A DNA stretch of 64,000 nt from Antedon mediterranea (Eukaryota > Echinodermata > Crinoidea > Comatulida > Antedonidae): positions 3,917,001 through 3,981,000 of the forward strand of contig NC_092671.1 of the NCBI RefSeq assembly GCF_964355755.1, read 5' to 3'. A program made the position numbers and the translations under genes. The notes beneath the pieces were generated by a model. The model ran no database searches. It was not told the DNA's origin and worked only from the letters and a program-made list of their open reading frames with translations. Position 1 is the first letter of the stretch; each line of letters opens with the position of its first letter. Positions 305 to 20,506 of this stretch are shown here, piece by piece.

Positions 305-578
305 GTACCATCAATCAGCATGGGATGAGCCCTGCAAATGTTTGTAGGGGCTGTCCAACATCAATCAGAACGGGAGGAGCCTTGTGAATTTTTATAGGTG
401 CAGCTGTCCACCACTCAGCATGGAGAGAACCTTATGAGTGCTTTTTGGGGCTGACTACCACCAATCAACATGGAGAGAGCCCTGTGAGTACTCGTAGGCC
501 CAACTAGTCACCACCCATAAGCATGAAGAGAGCCTTATAAGTGCTTGTACGAGTTGACCATCAACAATCAACAAGGGG
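305..578. repeat. Minisatellite, about 60-bp unit, 4-5 diverged copies
   Basis: The phrase 'accatcaatcagcatgg...agccctgtgagtgcttgtagg' recurs about every 58-64 bp with substitutions and small indels. It sits in the EXT2 intron just 3' (minus sense) of the 824-602 exon. No coding or regulatory role is apparent. Confidence 0.75.
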
Positions 579-601
579 AGAAAAATCACATTACAACTTA
601 C

Positions 602-3435
602 TTTGCTTGGCTCATTCCAAGATGCATAACTCTTTTTCATATATGGAAATATCCTGTCATTGATAATTTGCAGTGTTGTCAATGCTATCTGGCCCATCGA
701 CTTAAAGTAGTTCTCCCAATAGAACAATGCCTGTTTTCGCATCAACTGAATTTGTGTCGAAGAGGTCAAGCTGAGAATGTCTGGTAAACGCTCTAGTTCT
801 TCTTCCCTGATTGAAATTGACGCCCTACAAAAATTGAAAATTAGTTAAGTTTTTAATACCAACCTAGTAATCTAAATTTTTAACAAATTAGTACCTGACC
901 AATGATTTGAGATTGCAATTATGTATTTCTTTTTTTTTTATAAATTGTTGAGAGTAATAAATAATTAACATATTGAAAAGCAGTCACAGTGTTCTTTTAC
1001 TGAGTACAGTATGTAGATGTATTATATTATCAGGGATGTAGTTGGGAAGTTTAGTAGTGGGTGTCAATAACTTTAAGACTGGGTGGGGAAAAAACAGTAC
1101 TTTAAAAGGTATTCAGACATTGTGTGCTGTGGTAAAATTAGAAGGCTTTAAAATAAGCTTTTATTAGGTTGGAAGACATTGAAGGTGTCTTCACCCACCT
1201 CAGCACATCCATGTAATATTAATATTTTTCTGTTGTACATTAGCCAGTAAATATGTTTATTTTTCAAAGTATAAATTTATAAATGCTTACCGTGTCCAGT
1301 CTAAGACATCTGCGAATGGCATTACATATGTATCTATTACAACAACTGGTATACAACCTGCTTTCAATGCGTCACTTAGGGCCGGTTGGCCTAGACGTGC
1401 CCGACGCAATATTATACAAAATGTAGCATCCTGATAAAAAATAAAAATGACAAAGTGAGCCGCTGTGTCATATCTCGCAGTACTGACCAAGTCCAATTTT
1501 TACCCAAAAAAATGTTATCCTATTATTATATTATTCTGAAAACCAAATAATTCTGGAAAAATCCAAGGTGTATTTCATTAAAAACTCTTAAAATATAATT
1601 TCTGGAAAAACCCAAACTATATTTCTGGAAAAACCCAAAAAACATTTTTGTGAAAAAACCAAAGGTAAATTTAGGGAAAAACCCAAGGTATATTTGTGGA
1701 AACACCCAAAAAAATCCATATATTAATATTCAAATTTTAAACACAAACCTGTAAAACATGTGGGTAGCGAAACTGATCATTGCCTTTGCACATTTTCGAG
1801 GTGTCCGTCTCATCTTCGTTGCCCGATTCACATCGGTCCAGAATCAGTATATCTGAATGACTGTTTGCTAGATCATCAAGTTCGTCCCGGAAGTCGGGAT
1901 GTATTCCAATTTGTGCAGATATTGCCAAATATTTTCTATCAGCCCTATAGAATAATTTAACAATCAATAATTATTAGAAAAGTACTGTAAAGTAGTATGT
2001 CTTTATATAGAAATGCACTGGAAAAACGACAAAGTGAGCCGCTGTGTGAGAAATGACTTTCAAAAATTGAATAGGACCTATGGTGCAATGACCTATGGTG
2101 CAATTACCTAGGTAGTATTTAATTCAGTATATTTCACAATGCAACATTAGACAAATACATTCTATCAGATGTTATAAATAACAAGTGCATTTTTTTAAAA
2201 AGATAATCACTATAACTGTGCAATTTACCTCTAATAGAGAAAAGGGCCTGTAAACATAACTATACTCACTTTATATCCACTTCAGGAAGTAGGATTAAAC
2301 TAACTTCTGGATTGAAGACGGGAATGCTAACATCAAACCCAGAACGGTAAGTCCACGTAGAGAAGCCGCCACCAGCAACGATAGCCTTACCACGAGGAAC
2401 ATCCAATGACGTGTTGAAATCTGGTACAGTTCCAGGCAAGATATTAAATAGCAGATGATTCAAACCATGATTCCACCTATAATATGAAAAAAATATGTTA
2501 AGCTCTGTTTACACTAAAAAATGTGTGATGTGCATAAATATGGTAGTGATATGCCTAAATATGGTAGTGATATGACATCATCATGTGCATATGTGCACAT
2601 CACATTTTTTGTCAAATAAAGTTTGATAGTGTAAACAGTGCCTTAGATGAGCGCATTTATATTTGACTTTGACAGGGCCCAAACAAATATAATGTACATA
2701 CAATAGTACCCAAGGAGCATTTGGATAATATATTATTATGATGATTGTACAAGAAATAAACATAAAAGTACTTGTGTACATCTCTCTATAATTTTTACTG
2801 TATGCTTTAATAGCAAAGCCGACCGACAATCGGACAATAATTAAATTAAGAAGACATTTATAAAGGTGTCCCCTTAATAGGGGTTCTGCTGTATATAAGA
2901 ATTTATATGCTTGTATACAGTATGTACACTACCTAGGTAACTGCGCCAATACTTGACCGTTCTCATGGGTCCTAAGTGTGTTCTGGCTTAGCATGTCAAT
3001 AGACGGTATAAACAGACATGCTCTCTCCGGTTCAGCAGTGTAAAACGAACTTGAAGCAATTGTGGTTAACACCTCATGAAACTCCTTCGATAAAGTGTTT
3101 GTTATTATAATTCCATTCTCATCTATATATTTCTTAACTGGATATATATAAACACTAATCATATTTGCATCTTTCCCACAGTGATAAACATCTAGGCATT
3201 CATAGTGGCTACATGTTATGTCCCCTTTGTGTGCTGGTTGGCTTGTTGATAAAATCTTGACCTCTGGTACGGAATTCAAATCCGGAATGGTGAAAAGGTT
3301 TCTCCGTTCTCTTTCGGTCTCTTGCGTGTGTGGCCAAAATTGAAAGAATCCTGTTACTATAACGCCGAATAGAATAACTGTAAATAATACTATGTAAAAG
3401 TTTTGGTATTTTGAGCGAAGTCTCATCGTAATCAT
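602..3435 (-). CDS. EXT2: Exostosin-2 (EXT2), first five coding exons, 3' part outside window
   Basis: EXT2 with EXT1 forms the Golgi co-polymerase that extends heparan sulfate with alternating GlcA and GlcNAc. Exons on the minus strand are 3435-2933, 2476-2270, 1944-1749, 1430-1291 and 824-602. All junctions are AG/GT and the frame is kept throughout (1269 nt, 423 codons). The start is the ATG at 3435, giving a short cytoplasmic tail and a signal-anchor helix (residues about 14-33, [12 protein letters not shown]...). The exostosin (GT47) domain follows, with family-typical stretches such as [37 protein letters not shown] and [15 protein letters not shown]. The vertebrate protein is about 718 residues, so the C-terminal GT64 half lies left of position 1. 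Identification rests on near-colinear similarity to vertebrate EXT2. Introns carry a MITE and small repeats. Confidence 0.95.
1548..1715. repeat. Degenerate short tandem repeat in EXT2 intron
   Basis: About six units of roughly 28-32 bp are each recognisable by 'ggaaaaacccaa' followed by an AT-rich spacer. The array lies between EXT2 exons 3 and 4. Confidence 0.6.
2498..2646. mobile_element. MITE, 'TTAAGCTCTGTCTACACTA' family, copy in EXT2 intron
   Basis: The left end ttaagctctgtttacacta is mirrored by the right end gatagtgtaaacagtgcc. The interior has the family's 'gtgatgtgc', 'aaatatggtagtgatatg' and 'atgacatcatcatg' blocks, seen also at 12.7, 44.2, 46.1-47.4, 58.4 and 61.2 kb. It is non-coding and lies between EXT2 exons 1 and 2. 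Confidence 0.8.
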
Positions 3436-3911
3436 TATGGCAGCGCTTATGACAAGAAATCTGTAATTAAACAAAACATTTAAAGAAAATTTATATTTTT
3501 AAAAATTAATTCGATGAACCCATTTTGGCCACTAAATTGGATCCAAGAAGGCGGATAATGTTGAAACTTCATTTAACATTCCCAGAGTACAATTACTTTA
3601 ATACTGTACCCCATCATGTGTATAATTTTAGATGTGTGCTGTAAGCAAAATTTGTATAACGAACAAACGTACAAACTCTATATATTTATATACAGTAGAT
3701 GCGGACGGTGTAACAAAAATCAACCACTTCAACTTCATTAATCAACTATCATAATAAAATTTAAAGTACTAATACAATTTCATTATCCACTAAACTTGAT
3801 TTACTGTTTTACTGTATGTGTAAACACTCTGTAGTTACAAACCTCATAACCACTAACGTAACCAAATTTAAGCAACAATTTTTGTTATACTGTATTATTG
3901 ATTAAAGTTTG

Positions 3912-4188: not shown

Positions 4189-4272
4189 GTCACGGTGGCC
4201 GAGTGGTTAAGGCGTTGGGCTTAAAATTCAATGGGTATTACACCCGCGCAGGTTCGAGTCCTGTCCGTGACG
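4189..4272 (+). tRNA. tRNA with serine-type body and UAA (Leu) anticodon
   Basis: Acceptor stem GTCACGG/CCGTGAC is perfect, followed by discriminator G. The D-arm, long variable arm (GGGT/ACCC stem) and T-arm (GGTTCGAGTCC) are intact, and a T6 Pol III terminator lies just downstream. The anticodon loop CTTAAAA gives UAA, which reads the leucine codon UUA. The body is almost that of the tRNA-Ser(CGA) at 5768-5849, including the serine-type acceptor stem and G73; metazoan leucine tRNAs normally have A73. The anticodon stem TTGGG/TTCAA needs two G-U pairs. It is either a tRNA-Ser duplicate with a changed anticodon arm or a decayed copy. Confidence 0.85.
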
Positions 4273-4700
4273 TACTTTTTTATAACTTTTGTTATCATTT
4301 CCAAGATAACATAGAGGCCTAGCTAGGCCTACCTAGCCTAGCCTAGGCTATCTATGTCAATTTATTTATTAATAAAAGTCCAAACATCAATCAAAATAAT
4401 AATAGCAAAAACATGTACTACTATTTTTATTAAATTATAATACTTCTGTTTAGTAAATCAGTAGTAGTAGTATCTTTATTTCATTCAAACGACTGCTAGT
4501 ACTACTACTACAAACTACAGAGTACTAGGCTAGTAAGTAGTAGAGCCGCTTAGAAGTAGTACTAAACTACCTAGGCCTAGCCTAGATAGAGGCTAGCTAG
4601 AGACTAGAGTAGGCCTACAGGCCTTTGTTACAACCACACCTAAACCTTCCTAAACACAAACAAAAAAGGTTTAATTTACATTAATTTTGAAACTACTAAC

Positions 4701-5767: not shown

Positions 5768-5849
5768 CGTCACGGACAGGATTCGAACCTGTGCGGGGAG
5801 ACCCCATTGGATTTCGAGTCCAACGCCTTAACCACTCGGCCACCGTGAC
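5768..5849 (-). tRNA. tRNA-Ser (anticodon CGA)
   Basis: On the minus strand the 82-nt gene folds fully: acceptor GTCACGG/CCGTGAC with discriminator G, D-arm GCC/GGC, anticodon stem TTGGA/TCCAA around loop CTCGAAA (anticodon CGA), long variable arm GGGG/CCCC, and T-arm ACAGG/CCTGT with GTTCGAAT. The T-run after the 3' end (+ strand poly-A around 5752-5764) is the Pol III terminator. It decodes UCG. No intron or CCA is encoded, as expected for a eukaryotic nuclear gene. Confidence 0.95.
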
Positions 5850-6474
5850 ATGCGCATAAATTCTTCGCTAGATTGTATTTAGACGCTGTACAGTATTTAC
5901 AAACAAATCTTAAAGGGTAGTTCCGTTTTCAAATTTATCAATACAACATTTTTCTAAAATCAACATGGAATTATCATCAAAGTTGTATAAGCACGAACAT
6001 CATGTAATAAGCTTCTTTTTTTGCAGTGCTACACAGTCTAGGGACTTTTTATAAGGCCTATGAGAAAAACTATTCAGTAGTAAAAACTCGCACATTTGAC
6101 TCACTTAAATTTGAGGGTTCTAGGACACCTACCCCCTAGACAGTTACCCCCCGGATGTTTACCACCCGGACAACTACCCCCTTAGGACAACTACCCCCCG
6201 GACAACTACCCCCCGGACAACTACCCCCTTAGGACAACTACCCCCTTAGGATAACAACCCCCCGGACAACTACCCCCCGAACAACCACCCCCCCCTAGGA
6301 CAACTACCCCCTTAGGACAACTACCCCCCCGGATAACTACCCCCAGTCAACAACCCCCAAGTCAACTACCCCCCCCCCCCCCCCAACTACCACCCCCCCC
6401 CCCCTCCCCACCAATCCACAAGTTGACAAATATATAGGACCGGTTTCTGTAAAAATGAAATCATCTGTTTTTAA

Positions 6475-6903
6475 CGGGTGTTTCGAAACTAGAGACCCGA
6501 GACCAGAGACCTGAGACGAGACCCAATACGAAAAGGGAGACCTATATTTTGGTCTCCCTTTTCGTATATTAGGGTCTCCCTTTTCGTATAGTGTGGTCTC
6601 TCTTTTCGTATAGTGGGGTCTCCCTTTTCTTATAGTAGGTCTCCCTTTTCGTATATTTGGGTCTCCCATTTTGTATATTTGGGTCTCCCTTTTCGTATAT
6701 TTGGGTCTCCCTTTTCGTATATTTAGGTCTCCCTTTTCGTATATTAGGGTCTCCCTTTTCGTATAGTGGGGTCTCCCTTTTCGTAAAGTGGGGTCTCCCT
6801 TTTCGTACGTGGGTCTCCCTTTTCGTATATTTAGGTCTCCCTTTTCGGATTGGGTCTCGGGTCTCTGGTCTCTGGTCTCGGGTCTCTAGTTTCGAAACAC
6901 CCG
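6475..6903. mobile_element. Nested inverted-repeat element with 22-bp satellite core
   Basis: Terminal inverted repeats of about 55 bp begin cgggtgtttcgaaactag and flank roughly 14 copies of a 20-24-bp unit, gggtctcccttttcgtatat. The element is bounded by a 7-bp direct repeat tttttaa (6468-6474 and 6904-6910). It sits in the loop of the larger fold-back element, so it is probably a later insertion. It is non-coding. Confidence 0.75.
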
Positions 6904-6962
6904 TTTTTAACCGATTATTCTGTTTAACAGCACGCTAGACCCTAGATGTGCTAGATTTAAAG

Positions 6963-7346
6963 TACCGTATTTATTGAAAAAACGGTCTGGGCTGTTTATT
7001 GTTTAGTTGGTTTTTAGGTGGACATTTATTGGAAGAAAGTTGTTTATTCAATGGGAGGGGGTATAATCTAATGGAAATAGACGCCGATTATTCCATATGA
7101 TGTTTCATGGAAGTGACATGGTCACCGTTTATTTGAGGGGAATTTATTTAAAGATCGCCGTTTATTCGGTGAGTGAACATTGAGGTCAAATATCAAAAGT
7201 GATATTATTCTTCAAGTGTACAAAAATACATATATGACAAATTTGAGACAAAAATTCATTCTTTTAAGACCAGTGGTTATCGAAGCATTGTCCTGACGCA
7301 AAAATTATTATTATTATTAGCGAACCCAGTCTTTACAGTAAATACA
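6963..7346. mobile_element. Possible small element with 'accgtatttatt' ends
   Basis: The left end taccgtatttattgaaaaaa is weakly mirrored by ctttacagtaaatacag at 7331-7346. The interior repeats 'gtttattcgg'-like words, as does the clearer element at 29044-29421. Divergence makes the boundaries uncertain. Confidence 0.35.
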
Positions 7347-7529
7347 GGGAGTACTATATAATACGTTCGACTATCCTATGATCATGTGTGACAATCTTCA
7401 GTTTATAACAGGTATTTATGTTCAATCTTTTACTTTTGTTTACAATAATGAATAGTAATTCGTCAAAGTAACGAATTAAAATATAGTTATTAATTCCTAT
7501 TATACACTGTTGCAGAGTCAGGTTGTTGA

Positions 7530-8075
7530 ATGGTCTGGGTGGTAGTTGTCCGTCCGGGTGGTAGTTGTTCTAAAGAGATAGTTGTCTGGGTGGTAGTGGT
7601 CCAGGGGTTAGTTGTCCGTCCGGGGGGTAGTTGTTCTAAAGGGATAGTTGTCTGGGTGGTAGTGGTCCAGGGGTTAGTTGTCCGTCCGGGGGGTAGTTGT
7701 TCTAAAGGGATAGTTGTCTGGGTGGTAGTGGTCCAGGGGTTAGTTGTCCGTCCGGGGGGTAGTTGTTCTAAAGGGATAGTTGTCTGGGTGGTAGTTGTCC
7801 GTCCGGGGGGTAGTTGTTCTAAAGGGATAGTTGTCTGGGTGGTAGTGGTCCAGGGGTTAGTTGTCCGTCCGGGGGGTAGTTGTTCTAAAGGGATAGTTGT
7901 CTGGGTGGTAGTGGTCCAGGGGTTAGTTGTCCGTCCGGGGGGTAGTTGTTCTAAAGGGATAGTTGTCTGGGTGGTAGTGGTCCAGGGGTTAGTTGTCCGT
8001 CCGGGGGGTAGTTGTTCTAAAGGGATAGTTGTCTGGGTGGTAGTTGTCCAGGGGTTAGTTGTCCTACGGAGGTAG
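7530..8075. repeat. 66-bp higher-order repeat in right fold-back arm
   Basis: The landmark 'ttctaaaggga' recurs at spacings 66, 66, 66, 51, 66, 66 and 66 bp. The single short unit lacks exactly one 15-bp monomer, showing that the 66-bp unit is a higher-order repeat of about 15-bp monomers that has expanded recently. Confidence 0.8.
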
Positions 8076-8655
8076 TTGTCCTAAAAGATTATTTGCCCTC
8101 GGAGTATTGTCCAGGTCCAGGAGGTAGTTGTCCTACGGGGAGTATTGTGTCAGAGGTAGTTGTCCGCGGGGTAATTACCCGGGGGGGGGGTAATTGTCAG
8201 GGGGTAGTTGTTCCTAAGGGGTAATTGTCCGGGGGTAGTTGTCCAGGGGTTAGTTGTCCTACGGAGGTAGTTGTCCTAAAAGATTATTTTCCCTCGGAGT
8301 ATTGTCCAGGAAGTAGTTGTCCTACGGGGAGTATTGTGTCAGAGGTAGTTGTCCGCGGGGTAATTACCCGGGGGAGGGGGGTAATTGTCCGGGGGGTAAT
8401 TGTTCCTAGGGCGTAATTGTCAGGGGGTAGTTGTCCAGGGGGTAGTTGTCCAGGGGGTAGTTGTCCTAAGGGGGTTGTTGTCCTAAGGGGATAGTTGTCC
8501 GGGGGGTAGTTGTCCGGGGGGTATTTGTCCGAGGGGTAGCTGTCCTAAAGGGGTAGTTGTCCTAAGGGGGTAGTGGTCCAGGTGGTGGTTGTCCGGGGGT
8601 AGTTTTCCGGGGGGTAAATGTCCAGGGGGTGAATATCCGGATACGAAATTTGAGG

Positions 8656-17918: not shown

Positions 17919-20506
17919 TCATTTACTTTTCTTCTTTTTTCCTTGAGATTTTTCTTTCTCTTGAGCTGCAAGTTTTGCCATTGTTTCAGCAAAGCTCATA
18001 GCACTACTTCTCATATCTGTTGTTTCGTTCGAAGTTCTTCCTAATCTATCACCTCGCCACTTTGTTTCCTATAAAAAAAAGAGATTTTTTTCACGGGATG
18101 CTTATTTGATCATAGGAATTATTTACCGATTTTCAATGGCTTTACAACCGTAAATCAACCAGATGGTGATGATAATTTTTCAAAGTAATATAAATTTGAA
18201 TAAATGTTGGTGCTTTTTATATTTGATAATAATAATTGATTAATATCAAGTTTTTTTAACTTATTTTTTTATAAAACTTTTAGTCTATTCAAAATTCAAT
18301 ATATTTCCAAAGAGAGTATAAAATAAAAGCCATAATTATTATTTATAATAAAAAAATGAATTGAAAAATTATAAACACGGAGCTGCCCTTTAAGTTACCC
18401 AGAAACACTACCGTATCTCTTTGTGCATATATCAATTCTAACAATTGTGGGAAATTCCCCGTGTGTCGGTATCGTATAATATTGATTTTCTCAATACTTT
18501 CATGATTTCCGAATCGAAAATCGAACCATAAATGTTTACAGAAGCTAGAATACAAAAGATATATGCGCGTATAAAACACAGAGTAGGAGTGTCTGTGGAG
18601 CTCGGTGGCGCACGCGCTCTTCTTTCTGTAGCCACACCAGGAGGGGTTTATTTTACAACTCCCTGGCAAAACTCAATTGATCAACTTGTTCATATCAATT
18701 GCTTTTGCCAGAATATCATCATAATTTAACTAGTTTCTAGATATCATTTGACCGACATTTCATTTTCAAGGTTATTAAATCCAATATTCAATAAATTACA
18801 TCTGATTATTTGATGTTTAGTTAAGCGTGCCAATATGAGTTTGTTTATCAAGACGACCGTAAATGGTATAAATTATAAAGCCAAGATGGTGGCATTACCT
18901 ACCCTCACTGTTGCTTTAATTCCCTGTGATCTCTGAGAACCTCGAATTGATCCATTTCTACTGAATTTCCCTGAAAAGTGAGGTAACTATTTAAAAAATA
19001 TACCCAAGTGTTAATTTTCTTTTCACTTATCTTGTTTTTACATGGTTAGACTTGACAAACTGAAGTGGAGAAATCTACTAAACAAATTACATATGTAAAT
19101 AATTACAATAGCTGATTAATCAGTAATAATATAATCAGGGAAGAGTTTTAACTCTTCCCTGATATAACGTTAAATCATTATAAGATAATAAAAACAAAAT
19201 GTAGGCCTACTACTGAAACGTATCAGTGTGCCATGGTATTACTCGAGTCGTAAATTCGTTTTGTACGGCCAGAATTCGGAAGGTACAATAAGAAAACATG
19301 CCATTTCCACTTCTTAAAATTTCACTCAAAATTGCCAAAAAAATGTATAAGGTAACATGCTTATAAAATAAGTCTCAGCTTGAGTTTAGAAAGAGTGAAG
19401 TAGAAAGTGTCGTGAAGTTACAACCATGAGACTATAGGACACAACTTAGGAGGGTTGAACCCTACACTTTGGAATTGGAAGGCAAGCATTAACGACCGCA
19501 GCTTTCAACATGTACGCCTATATTTGTTCTGTTTATTTATATAACGTGTTGTCGATGATGATTGTGTTACATACAGTTTTATAGGCTTTCGTTGTTTCAC
19601 TGGCAATAACTGGCATTATTCGATACCGTAATATAATGGCCTTAAGATAAGATAAGATAAGATAACTTTTATTGATCCTCAAAAAGGAAATTCATTGCTC
19701 GTCATAATAACAAAGAAAACACAATAAAAACAAATATAGCATAAAACCATTCATATAAAAACATCTAACAAATTACAAGATAAAATTATCTTCTTGACTT
19801 CCTGTACTGGATGATACCGGAGGGAATAAAGGATTTAGCAAATCGATTTGTTTTCACACTGAGGAGCCTCAATCTACCACTTGGATTAAGTTGGTCTATG
19901 ATCACTTTGTGGAGAGGATGAGAGGCATCCGACTCAATGCGTTCGAAATCTTTCTGGAGGTGTTCTAGGTGCACATCGGTAAAGGAAGGCAGTTCCAGAC
20001 CAATCATTTTACCAGCCCGACGGATGAAAGTTTCAAGGCGTCCTTTATTCCCTCCGGTAACATTACCAGCCCAACAGGAGAGGCAATACGTCCAAACACT
20101 ACAAATAACGGATCTATAGAACGAAAGTAACATCAAATCACAGGAGTTAAATTTATATAAAGTTCTCATACAATACATTCTGGGATTTAATTTTTTGCTG
20201 ATGAAGTCTATATGGTCTCCCCAACTCAGTTTATCATTGAAAACAATTCCTAGATACTTGTACTGGTCAACAATTTCAATTTCTTTACCTTTGATAGTGA
20301 TTGGTTGAAAATTAAATTTATGTTTAGTCCTAAAATCAATGATCATCTCCTTTGTTTTTTTATGCATTTATTTGTAGATAATTATCGTCACAAAATTTAA
20401 CAAATCTTTGTATTTCGCTACGATAATTGCTTAAAAAGAAATGAAAAAATGGATTCTTACCCTCTGAAGGTGTTTGTGTCCGTGTTACTACCTTCTTATC
20501 AGCCAT
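17919..20506 (-). CDS. Small basic protein of 85 residues, unrecognised, three exons
   Basis: Exons are 20506-20461 (start MADKKVVTRTQTPSE), 18970-18909 (GKFSRNGSIRGSQRSQGIK) and 18068-17919 (ETKWRGDRLGRT...KLAAQEKEKSQ, then a lysine-rich tail and stop). Junctions are GAGG|GTAAGA, CTTTTCAG|GG, ACA|GTGAGG and TTATAG|GAA, and the frame closes exactly (258 nt). The protein is hydrophilic with no signal peptide or membrane helix. Its middle has RGDRLGR and a short amphipathic stretch (SSAMSFAETMAKLAAQEKEK), and the C-terminus is KKKK-rich. I do not recognise the family. Exon structure and coherent composition support a real gene; function is unknown. Confidence 0.6.
19647..20435 (-). mobile_element. 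Non-LTR retrotransposon (LINE) 3' fragment
   Basis: On the minus strand the frame beginning near 20435 (EIQRFVKFCDDNYLQIN) continues after one frameshift near 20370 into KKTKEMIIDF, DQYKYLGIVFNDKLSW and a C-terminal region of 190 codons ending at 19786. YKYLG...L.W is typical of the end of LINE reverse transcriptases (CR1/L2-like lineages). The 3' end is a (taaga)n microsatellite tail at 19645-19667. It is 5' truncated and inactive, inserted in the first intron of the 85-residue gene. Confidence 0.85.

What the first reader, a model, noticed from the sequence alone, without database searches (positions are those of the whole stretch)
4189..4272. Serine-type tRNA body carrying a leucine (UAA) anticodon
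The gene shares its acceptor stem, discriminator G, D-arm and most of its T-arm with the tRNA-Ser(CGA) 1.5 kb away, but its anticodon loop is CTTAAAA (UAA). SerRS reads the long variable arm and G73, not the anticodon (established). If transcribed and charged, it could put serine at UUA codons. Two G-U pairs in the anticodon stem may instead mark decay. It could also be a gene conversion between Ser and Leu tRNA anticodon arms, since the arm (GTTGGxCTTAAxAT) resembles tRNA-Leu(UAA).
Basis: partly seen in the sequence, partly recalled or inferred. Interest (0 to 1): 0.65.

Follow-up and report, generated by a model that had tools for sequence, protein, structure and literature searches.

The report
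Serine tRNA copy with leucine anticodon
One copy of a serine tRNA gene in an animal genome has acquired a leucine (UAA) anticodon; its anticodon stem is weakened and it looks like a redundant duplicate drifting out of use, so a change in how the animal reads its genetic code is unlikely.

Summary
At 4189-4272 (+) there is a complete class II tRNA gene (Rfam tRNA 58.4 bits). Its acceptor stem, discriminator G73, T-stem and anticodon-loop bases A37/A38 are of serine type, but its anticodon is UAA. Isotype models built from this genome score it Ser 81.1 against Leu 71.5. Its nearest relative is the inverted Ser(CGA) gene 1.5 kb away, and its acceptor plus D-arm sequence occurs exactly only in these two genes in 354 Mb.

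The genuine Leu(UAA) genes (about 200 candidate places, array on C5) carry A73, another acceptor stem, and G37/U38. The gene is therefore a serine duplicate that drifted by transitions. Gene conversion from Leu is not supported, and no donor was found.

Box A, box B and a T6 terminator are intact, so transcription and serylation are possible. However, two tandem G-U pairs leave the anticodon stem predicted unstable (pairing probability 0.02, against 0.52-0.94 in five other genes). The gene scores below the intact Ser genes compared, and it is outnumbered about 200 to 1. Two Ser(AGA)-array copies with the same G35A change show that such copies arise and decay here. This is an ordinary alloacceptor anticodon shift, most likely without a coding role. 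Expression and charging are untested.

The parts
4189..4272 (+). tRNA gene: serine-type body with UAA (leucine) anticodon
   Evidence: Rfam RF00005 58.4 bits; ARAGORN Leu(taa); own Ser model 81.1 bits, own Leu model 71.5 bits
4189..4195 (+). acceptor stem 5' strand GTCACGG, identical to Ser(CGA) at 5849-5843; its 3' partner CCGTGAC is at 4265-4271
   Evidence: exact acceptor plus D-arm string only at these two loci in the genome
4196..4206 (+). box A (TGGCCGAGTGG), intact
   Evidence: sequence; comparison with the Pol III consensus rests on established knowledge
4215..4231 (+). anticodon arm TTGGG-CTTAAAA-TTCAA with tandem G-U pairs 30-40 and 31-39; anticodon UAA at 4222-4224
   Evidence: stem energy +1.4 kcal/mol against -0.5 to -5.6 in five other class II tRNAs
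4233..4245 (+). variable arm GGGT-ATTAC-ACCC: 4 pairs, 5-nt loop; 13 nt against 11 nt in the genome's Ser genes
4252..4262 (+). box B (GGTTCGAGTCC), intact; contains derived A59G
   Evidence: the same A59G occurs in one Ser(AGA) array copy, L066:1857-1938
4272..4272 (+). discriminator base G73 (serine type; genuine Leu genes here have A73)
4276..4281 (+). T6 Pol III-type terminator (TACTTTTTTA)
   Evidence: sequence
5768..5849 (-). tRNA-Ser(CGA), sibling gene in inverted orientation
   Evidence: Rfam 66 bits; Ser model 105.6 bits

Best explanation
The gene is an old inverted duplicate of a solitary serine (UCN) tRNA gene. Its anticodon drifted to UAA by transitions: one step (G35A) from UGA, or two (C34U, G35A) from CGA, where they fall on the two strands of one CpG. 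It still carries Pol III promoter boxes, a terminator and the serine identity elements G73 and a long variable arm. If transcribed and correctly folded it would be charged with serine and would read UUA. The anticodon stem is destabilised by two adjacent G-U pairs, the variable arm is changed, and about 200 genuine Leu(UAA) gene candidates compete with it. The most likely state is therefore a redundant copy under relaxed constraint, with little or no output and no selected decoding role. Shown: anatomy, serine ancestry, uniqueness, weakened stem prediction. Inferred: transcription, charging, lack of function.
For: Serine ancestry: Ser model above Leu model by 9.6 bits despite the Leu anticodon; the genuine Leu(UAA) gene shows the reverse, 76.6 against 102.2. 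Acceptor plus D-arm exact match only to the inverted Ser(CGA). Residual flank similarity over about 40 bp on each side. A37/A38, G73 and T-stem as in Ser, not Leu. Relaxed constraint: 81.1 bits against 95.2-111.3 for full-length Ser genes in the loci searched; predicted anticodon-stem pairing 0.018 against 0.52-0.94; 5 derived substitutions plus a variable-arm indel here, against 1 in the sibling. Same route elsewhere in the genome: two Ser(AGA) array copies with G35A giving AAA, one of them also with U8C. Literature: most alloacceptor remouldings sit at branch tips and are probably pseudogenes (PMC4981973). C40U and A59G, both present here, are each among 22 secondary changes that make a mistranslating yeast tRNASer non-lethal (PMC6827378).
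Against: All tRNA invariants, all cloverleaf pairs counting G-U, both promoter boxes and the terminator are kept. All stem changes preserve pairing, and the fourth variable-arm pair changed on both sides (G-C to U-A). Three random changes outside the anticodon would keep pairs and invariants in only 5-17% of cases. The body has diverged less than the flanks (6/71 against 14/65, p about 0.05). Some purifying selection, past or present, is therefore not excluded.
Confidence: 0.8

Rival explanations
1. It is an expressed serine-accepting tRNA that inserts serine at a small fraction of UUA leucine codons, with the G-U pairs and variable-arm change acting as attenuation that makes it tolerable.
For: Serine determinants and Pol III signals intact. 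Eukaryotic SerRS ignores the anticodon (PMC9976931). C40U and A59G are known attenuators in yeast (PMC6827378). Structure retained better than a random walk would give, weakly.
Against: Single copy against about 200 Leu(UAA) candidates. Stem predicted mostly unpaired. Overlap with the yeast attenuator list is expected by chance in 14-18% of cases. A59G also occurs in a Ser(AGA) array copy with a normal anticodon. No expression data.
Confidence: 0.12
2. It has been remoulded into a leucine acceptor, so anticodon and amino acid agree.
For: Leu anticodon. Acceptor pairs C3-G70 and A4-U69 match two of the three human Leu acceptor determinants (PMC9976931). Longer variable arm.
Against: G73 instead of A73; A73 is the key human Leu determinant and antideterminant against SerRS (PMC9976931). 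The same C3-G70 and A4-U69 are in the Ser(CGA) sibling, and the genome's own Leu(UAA) lacks C3-G70. No G37. Ser model scores above Leu model.
Confidence: 0.04
3. Gene conversion placed a tRNA-Leu(UAA) anticodon arm in a serine gene.
For: The strings GTTGG and CTTAA are shared with the Leu(UAA) arm.
Against: The arm differs from genuine Leu(UAA) at 4 positions (31, 37, 38, 40); A37 and A38 are serine type. UUGG and the other shared bases are also present in Ser. No second copy of the patch in the genome within 3 mismatches.
Confidence: 0.04

Closest known systems
CUG-clade and Ser2-clade yeast tRNA-Ser(CAG) (PMC5951914)
   Same: A serine tRNA gene with a mutated anticodon that reads a leucine codon; in the Ser2 clade a true Leu tRNA gene coexists and the serine tRNA has A37, as here.
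   Different: There the tRNA is the main decoder and the codon is reassigned. Here it is one weak gene among about 200 genuine Leu(UAA) candidates, with no sign of reassignment.
Human variant tRNA-Ser-AGA-2-3 G35A, anticodon AAA (PMC6779403)
   Same: The same G35A transition in a UCN serine tRNA; potential mistranslator.
   Different: Reads Phe codons and is a population variant reported with the single anticodon change. A close analogue (Ser with AAA, A31G, U8C) exists in this genome's C10 array.
Alloacceptor anticodon shifts or remouldings of nuclear tRNAs (PMC3923123, PMC4981973)
   Same: A redundant tRNA gene whose anticodon now names another amino acid; most such cases are young and probably non-functional.
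   Different: Ser shifts are rare in those surveys: PMC3923123 reports only one shift involving a Ser/SeC anticodon.
Nematode nev-tRNAs (PMC4033280)
   Same: Class II body with a non-matching anticodon; low expression.
   Different: nev-tRNA-Gly is charged with leucine and the bodies carry Gly or Ile anticodons; they are multi-copy and shared by several nematodes.

Membership tests
tRNA-Ser (eukaryotic, by identity elements) | G73 discriminator | tested here: met
   G at 4272; all Ser genes compared have G73, all full-length Leu genes compared have A73
tRNA-Ser (eukaryotic, by identity elements) | Long variable arm, positioned as in Ser | tested here: met
   4-bp arm with one base (U44) before it and GC after it, as in the genome's Ser genes; loop 5 instead of 3 nt. 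Leu genes here have the same layout, so the arm alone does not decide
tRNA-Ser (eukaryotic, by identity elements) | Best isotype model is Ser | tested here: met
   81.1 against 71.5 bits; models built without the query or its sibling from 5 Ser and 5 Leu genes
tRNA-Ser (eukaryotic, by identity elements) | Serine anticodon (UCN or AGY) | tested here: not met
   Anticodon UAA
tRNA-Leu(UAA) | A73 discriminator | tested here: not met
   G73
tRNA-Leu(UAA) | Body similar to the genome's Leu(UAA) genes | tested here: not met
   Acceptor AGTACGG and T-stem ATGGG in Leu(UAA) against GTCACGG and GCAGG here
Alloacceptor anticodon shift | Body of one isotype, anticodon of another, derived from a paralogue | tested here: met
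Alloacceptor anticodon shift | Direction and age established by synteny in relatives | not testable with these tools
   no related genomes are held for this animal
Genetic-code reassignment tRNA (yeast tRNA-Ser(CAG) kind) | Is the main decoder of the codon | tested here: not met
   By gene number only: about 200 Leu(UAA) candidate places against this single gene
Genetic-code reassignment tRNA (yeast tRNA-Ser(CAG) kind) | Expressed and charged with Ser | not testable with these tools
   no RNA or protein data
tRNA pseudogene | Broken structure or promoter | tested here: inconclusive
   No mismatches and boxes intact, but tandem G-U makes the anticodon stem unstable in prediction, and the Rfam score is 58.4 against 66 for the sibling
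tRNA-derived SINE or repeat | Many dispersed copies | tested here: not met
   patch unique genome-wide; exact acceptor plus D-arm string only at two loci

The most novel reading that the evidence does not exclude
An animal naturally makes a second, serine-charged tRNA for the leucine codon UUA, attenuated by a weak anticodon stem, giving low-level Leu-to-Ser mistranslation that may be maintained by selection.
Probability: 0.06. Interest if true: 0.75.

Novelty: new member of a known kind. Interest (0 to 1): 0.25.

Why it matters
Natural anticodon-shifted serine tRNAs are the raw material of code reassignment and mistranslation, because SerRS does not check the anticodon. If this gene were expressed and conserved it would be a natural animal case of two tRNAs giving different amino acids for one codon. 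As it stands, it mainly illustrates how redundant tRNA copies drift, and why annotation by anticodon alone (tRNA-Leu here) can be wrong.

Tried and rejected
Gene conversion from Leu(UAA): rejected on A37/A38 and on the absence of a donor. Repeat or SINE origin: rejected, unique copy. Leu remoulding: disfavoured by G73 and the isotype scores. The overlap with yeast attenuating mutations (C40U, A59G) and the recurrence of A31G together with G35A in the C10 copies looked striking. The yeast overlap is expected by chance in 14-18% of cases; my rough estimate for A31G recurring is about 10%, so neither is used as proof. A first free-end alignment of the flanks was misleading and was replaced by one anchored at the tRNA. 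Two early pattern searches used wrong spacing and missed the query itself; they were replaced. A search for COX1, to identify the phylum, found no match in the assembly. No promoter conclusion is drawn from the bacterial-type scan.

Full report
What is there. The window lies at C2:3917001-3981000 of a 354-Mb, 18-contig genome that has minisatellites, an exostosin-like gene and large tandem tRNA arrays, taken here to be an animal. At 4189-4272 (+) Rfam finds a full tRNA with 58.4 bits, and at 5768-5849 (-) a second one with 66 bits. ARAGORN names them Leu(taa) and Ser(cga). They are identical in acceptor stem, D-arm, G73 and the first strand of the anticodon stem up to base 30. They differ at 31, 34, 35, 40, 49, 59 and in the variable arm.

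Which body is it? In this genome all full-length Ser genes examined end in G73 and have T-stems of GCAGG type (ACAGG in the sibling). Full-length Leu genes end in A73 and have ATGGG or GTGGG T-stems. The genuine Leu(UAA) gene is AGTACGG...TTGGACTTAAGTTCCAA...A73. A pattern for it with one mismatch allowed matches 211 places including the query; those listed apart from the query lie in one tandem array on C5 with about 155-bp units. The D-arm is the same in Ser and Leu(UAA), so it does not discriminate. Covariance models built from five Ser and five Leu genes of this genome, leaving out the query and its sibling, score the query 81.1 (Ser) and 71.5 (Leu). The sibling scores 105.6 and 79.3; the genuine Leu(UAA) 76.6 and 102.2. 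The query is a serine body, but a weak one: full-length Ser genes in the loci searched score 95.2-111.3.

How did it arise? The 18-nt acceptor plus D-arm string occurs exactly only in the query and the inverted Ser(CGA) neighbour. About 40 bp of flank on each side retains weak similarity (24/32 and 27/33 ungapped columns, roughly 2 and 3.5 standard deviations above shuffles). This fits an old small inverted duplication. With other Ser genes as outgroup, A31G, G35A (with C34U if the parent was CGA), C40U, A59G and the variable-arm change are derived in the query. A49 is derived in the sibling. All substitutions outside the variable arm are transitions; CGA to UAA is what loss of one CpG on both strands would give, and UGA to UAA needs one change. 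Bases A37 and A38 are as in Ser, not as in Leu(UAA) (G37, U38), and the patch from base 29 of the tRNA through the variable arm has no other copy within 3 mismatches. Conversion from Leu is therefore not supported.

Could it work? Box A, box B and a T6 terminator are intact (sequence; the consensus is established knowledge). Eukaryotic serine identity rests on G73 and the long variable arm and not on the anticodon. Human Leu identity needs A73, and A73 is an antideterminant against SerRS (PMC9976931). The prediction is serylation if the RNA is made. Against efficient function, the tandem G-U pairs give an anticodon stem of +1.4 kcal/mol alone and a predicted pairing probability of 0.018, compared with 0.52-0.94 in five other class II tRNAs of this genome, and the cloverleaf lies 3.5 kcal/mol above the predicted minimum. 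These are unmodified-RNA predictions. In yeast, C40U and A59G, both present here, are each among 22 secondary mutations that make a mistranslating tRNASer(UGG) tolerable (PMC6827378); about 14-18% of random triples of transitions would overlap that list as well.

Constraint or decay? All pairs and invariants are kept, which three random changes outside the anticodon would do in 5-17% of trials. The body diverged less than the flanks (p about 0.05). On the other side, the query changed more than its sibling (5 to 1 plus an indel; 0.11 on substitutions alone), and the variable arm is altered. The evidence is mixed and weak both ways.

Is it special in its genome? No. A pattern for G35A in any UCN serine body finds the query and two copies in the Ser(AGA) array on C10, with anticodon AAA (Phe) and the same A31G. 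One of them, readable in L066:2760-2841, also has U8C, which breaks the conserved U8-A14 pair. The same G35A shift is known as a human variant, tRNA-Ser-AGA-2-3 (PMC6779403). Anticodon shifts are documented in primates, flies and worms (PMC3923123), and most alloacceptor ones are thought to be young pseudogenes (PMC4981973).

Compared with what is known. It works, if at all, like the yeast tRNA-Ser(CAG) genes: a serine body carrying a leucine anticodon, with A37 as in the Ser2 clade (PMC5951914). It is not a reassignment tRNA of that kind, because by gene number it cannot be the main decoder of UUA. It belongs to the known class of alloacceptor anticodon shifts. tRNAscan-SE 2.0 would flag such a gene as an isotype disagreement, a recognised category (PMC8450103).

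Conclusion. The likeliest account is a drifting duplicate with weak or no activity. Reassignment of UUA is very unlikely given the number of genuine Leu(UAA) genes. Low-level serine insertion at UUA is possible but untested.

Noticed in passing
L066:2760-2841 (C10:15185789) and C10:15187414: Two Ser(AGA)-array copies with anticodon AAA (Phe); both matched stretches show G35A and A31G, the same pair of changes as in the query, and the copy in L066 also carries U8C and G57A. Probably decayed array units; the repeated A31G is unexplained.
   Followed up: partly
C5:7071725 onward (L034-L062): Large tandem array of tRNA-Leu(UAA), unit about 155 bp, about 200 pattern matches genome-wide, some units degenerate.
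   Followed up: partly
C3:11558681-11581970: Tandem tRNA-Leu array, unit about 185 bp, in which anticodons AAG and UAG alternate (one CAG) with nearly the same D-arm and anticodon-stem 5' strand: isoacceptor shifts inside one array.
   Followed up: no
L014-L019 (C7:20.588 Mb): tRNA-Leu(CAG) array with units that lost part of the anticodon arm; ARAGORN misnames them Val(tac) and Pyl(cta).
   Followed up: no
window 6120-8640: Minisatellites: GTAGTTGTCC-type repeats and GTCTCCCTTTTCGTAT-type repeats, giving long spurious open frames.
   Followed up: no
window 455-3498 (-): Likely exons of an exostosin-like (GT47) glycosyltransferase gene; Pfam E 3e-7 on 2929-3498, slightly below the curated cut-off; no Pfam match for 455-844.
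   Followed up: partly
window 19786-20367 (-): Open frame that looks like the 3' part of a non-LTR retrotransposon reverse transcriptase, judged by eye; Pfam gives only a weak ALKBH8_N match.
   Followed up: no
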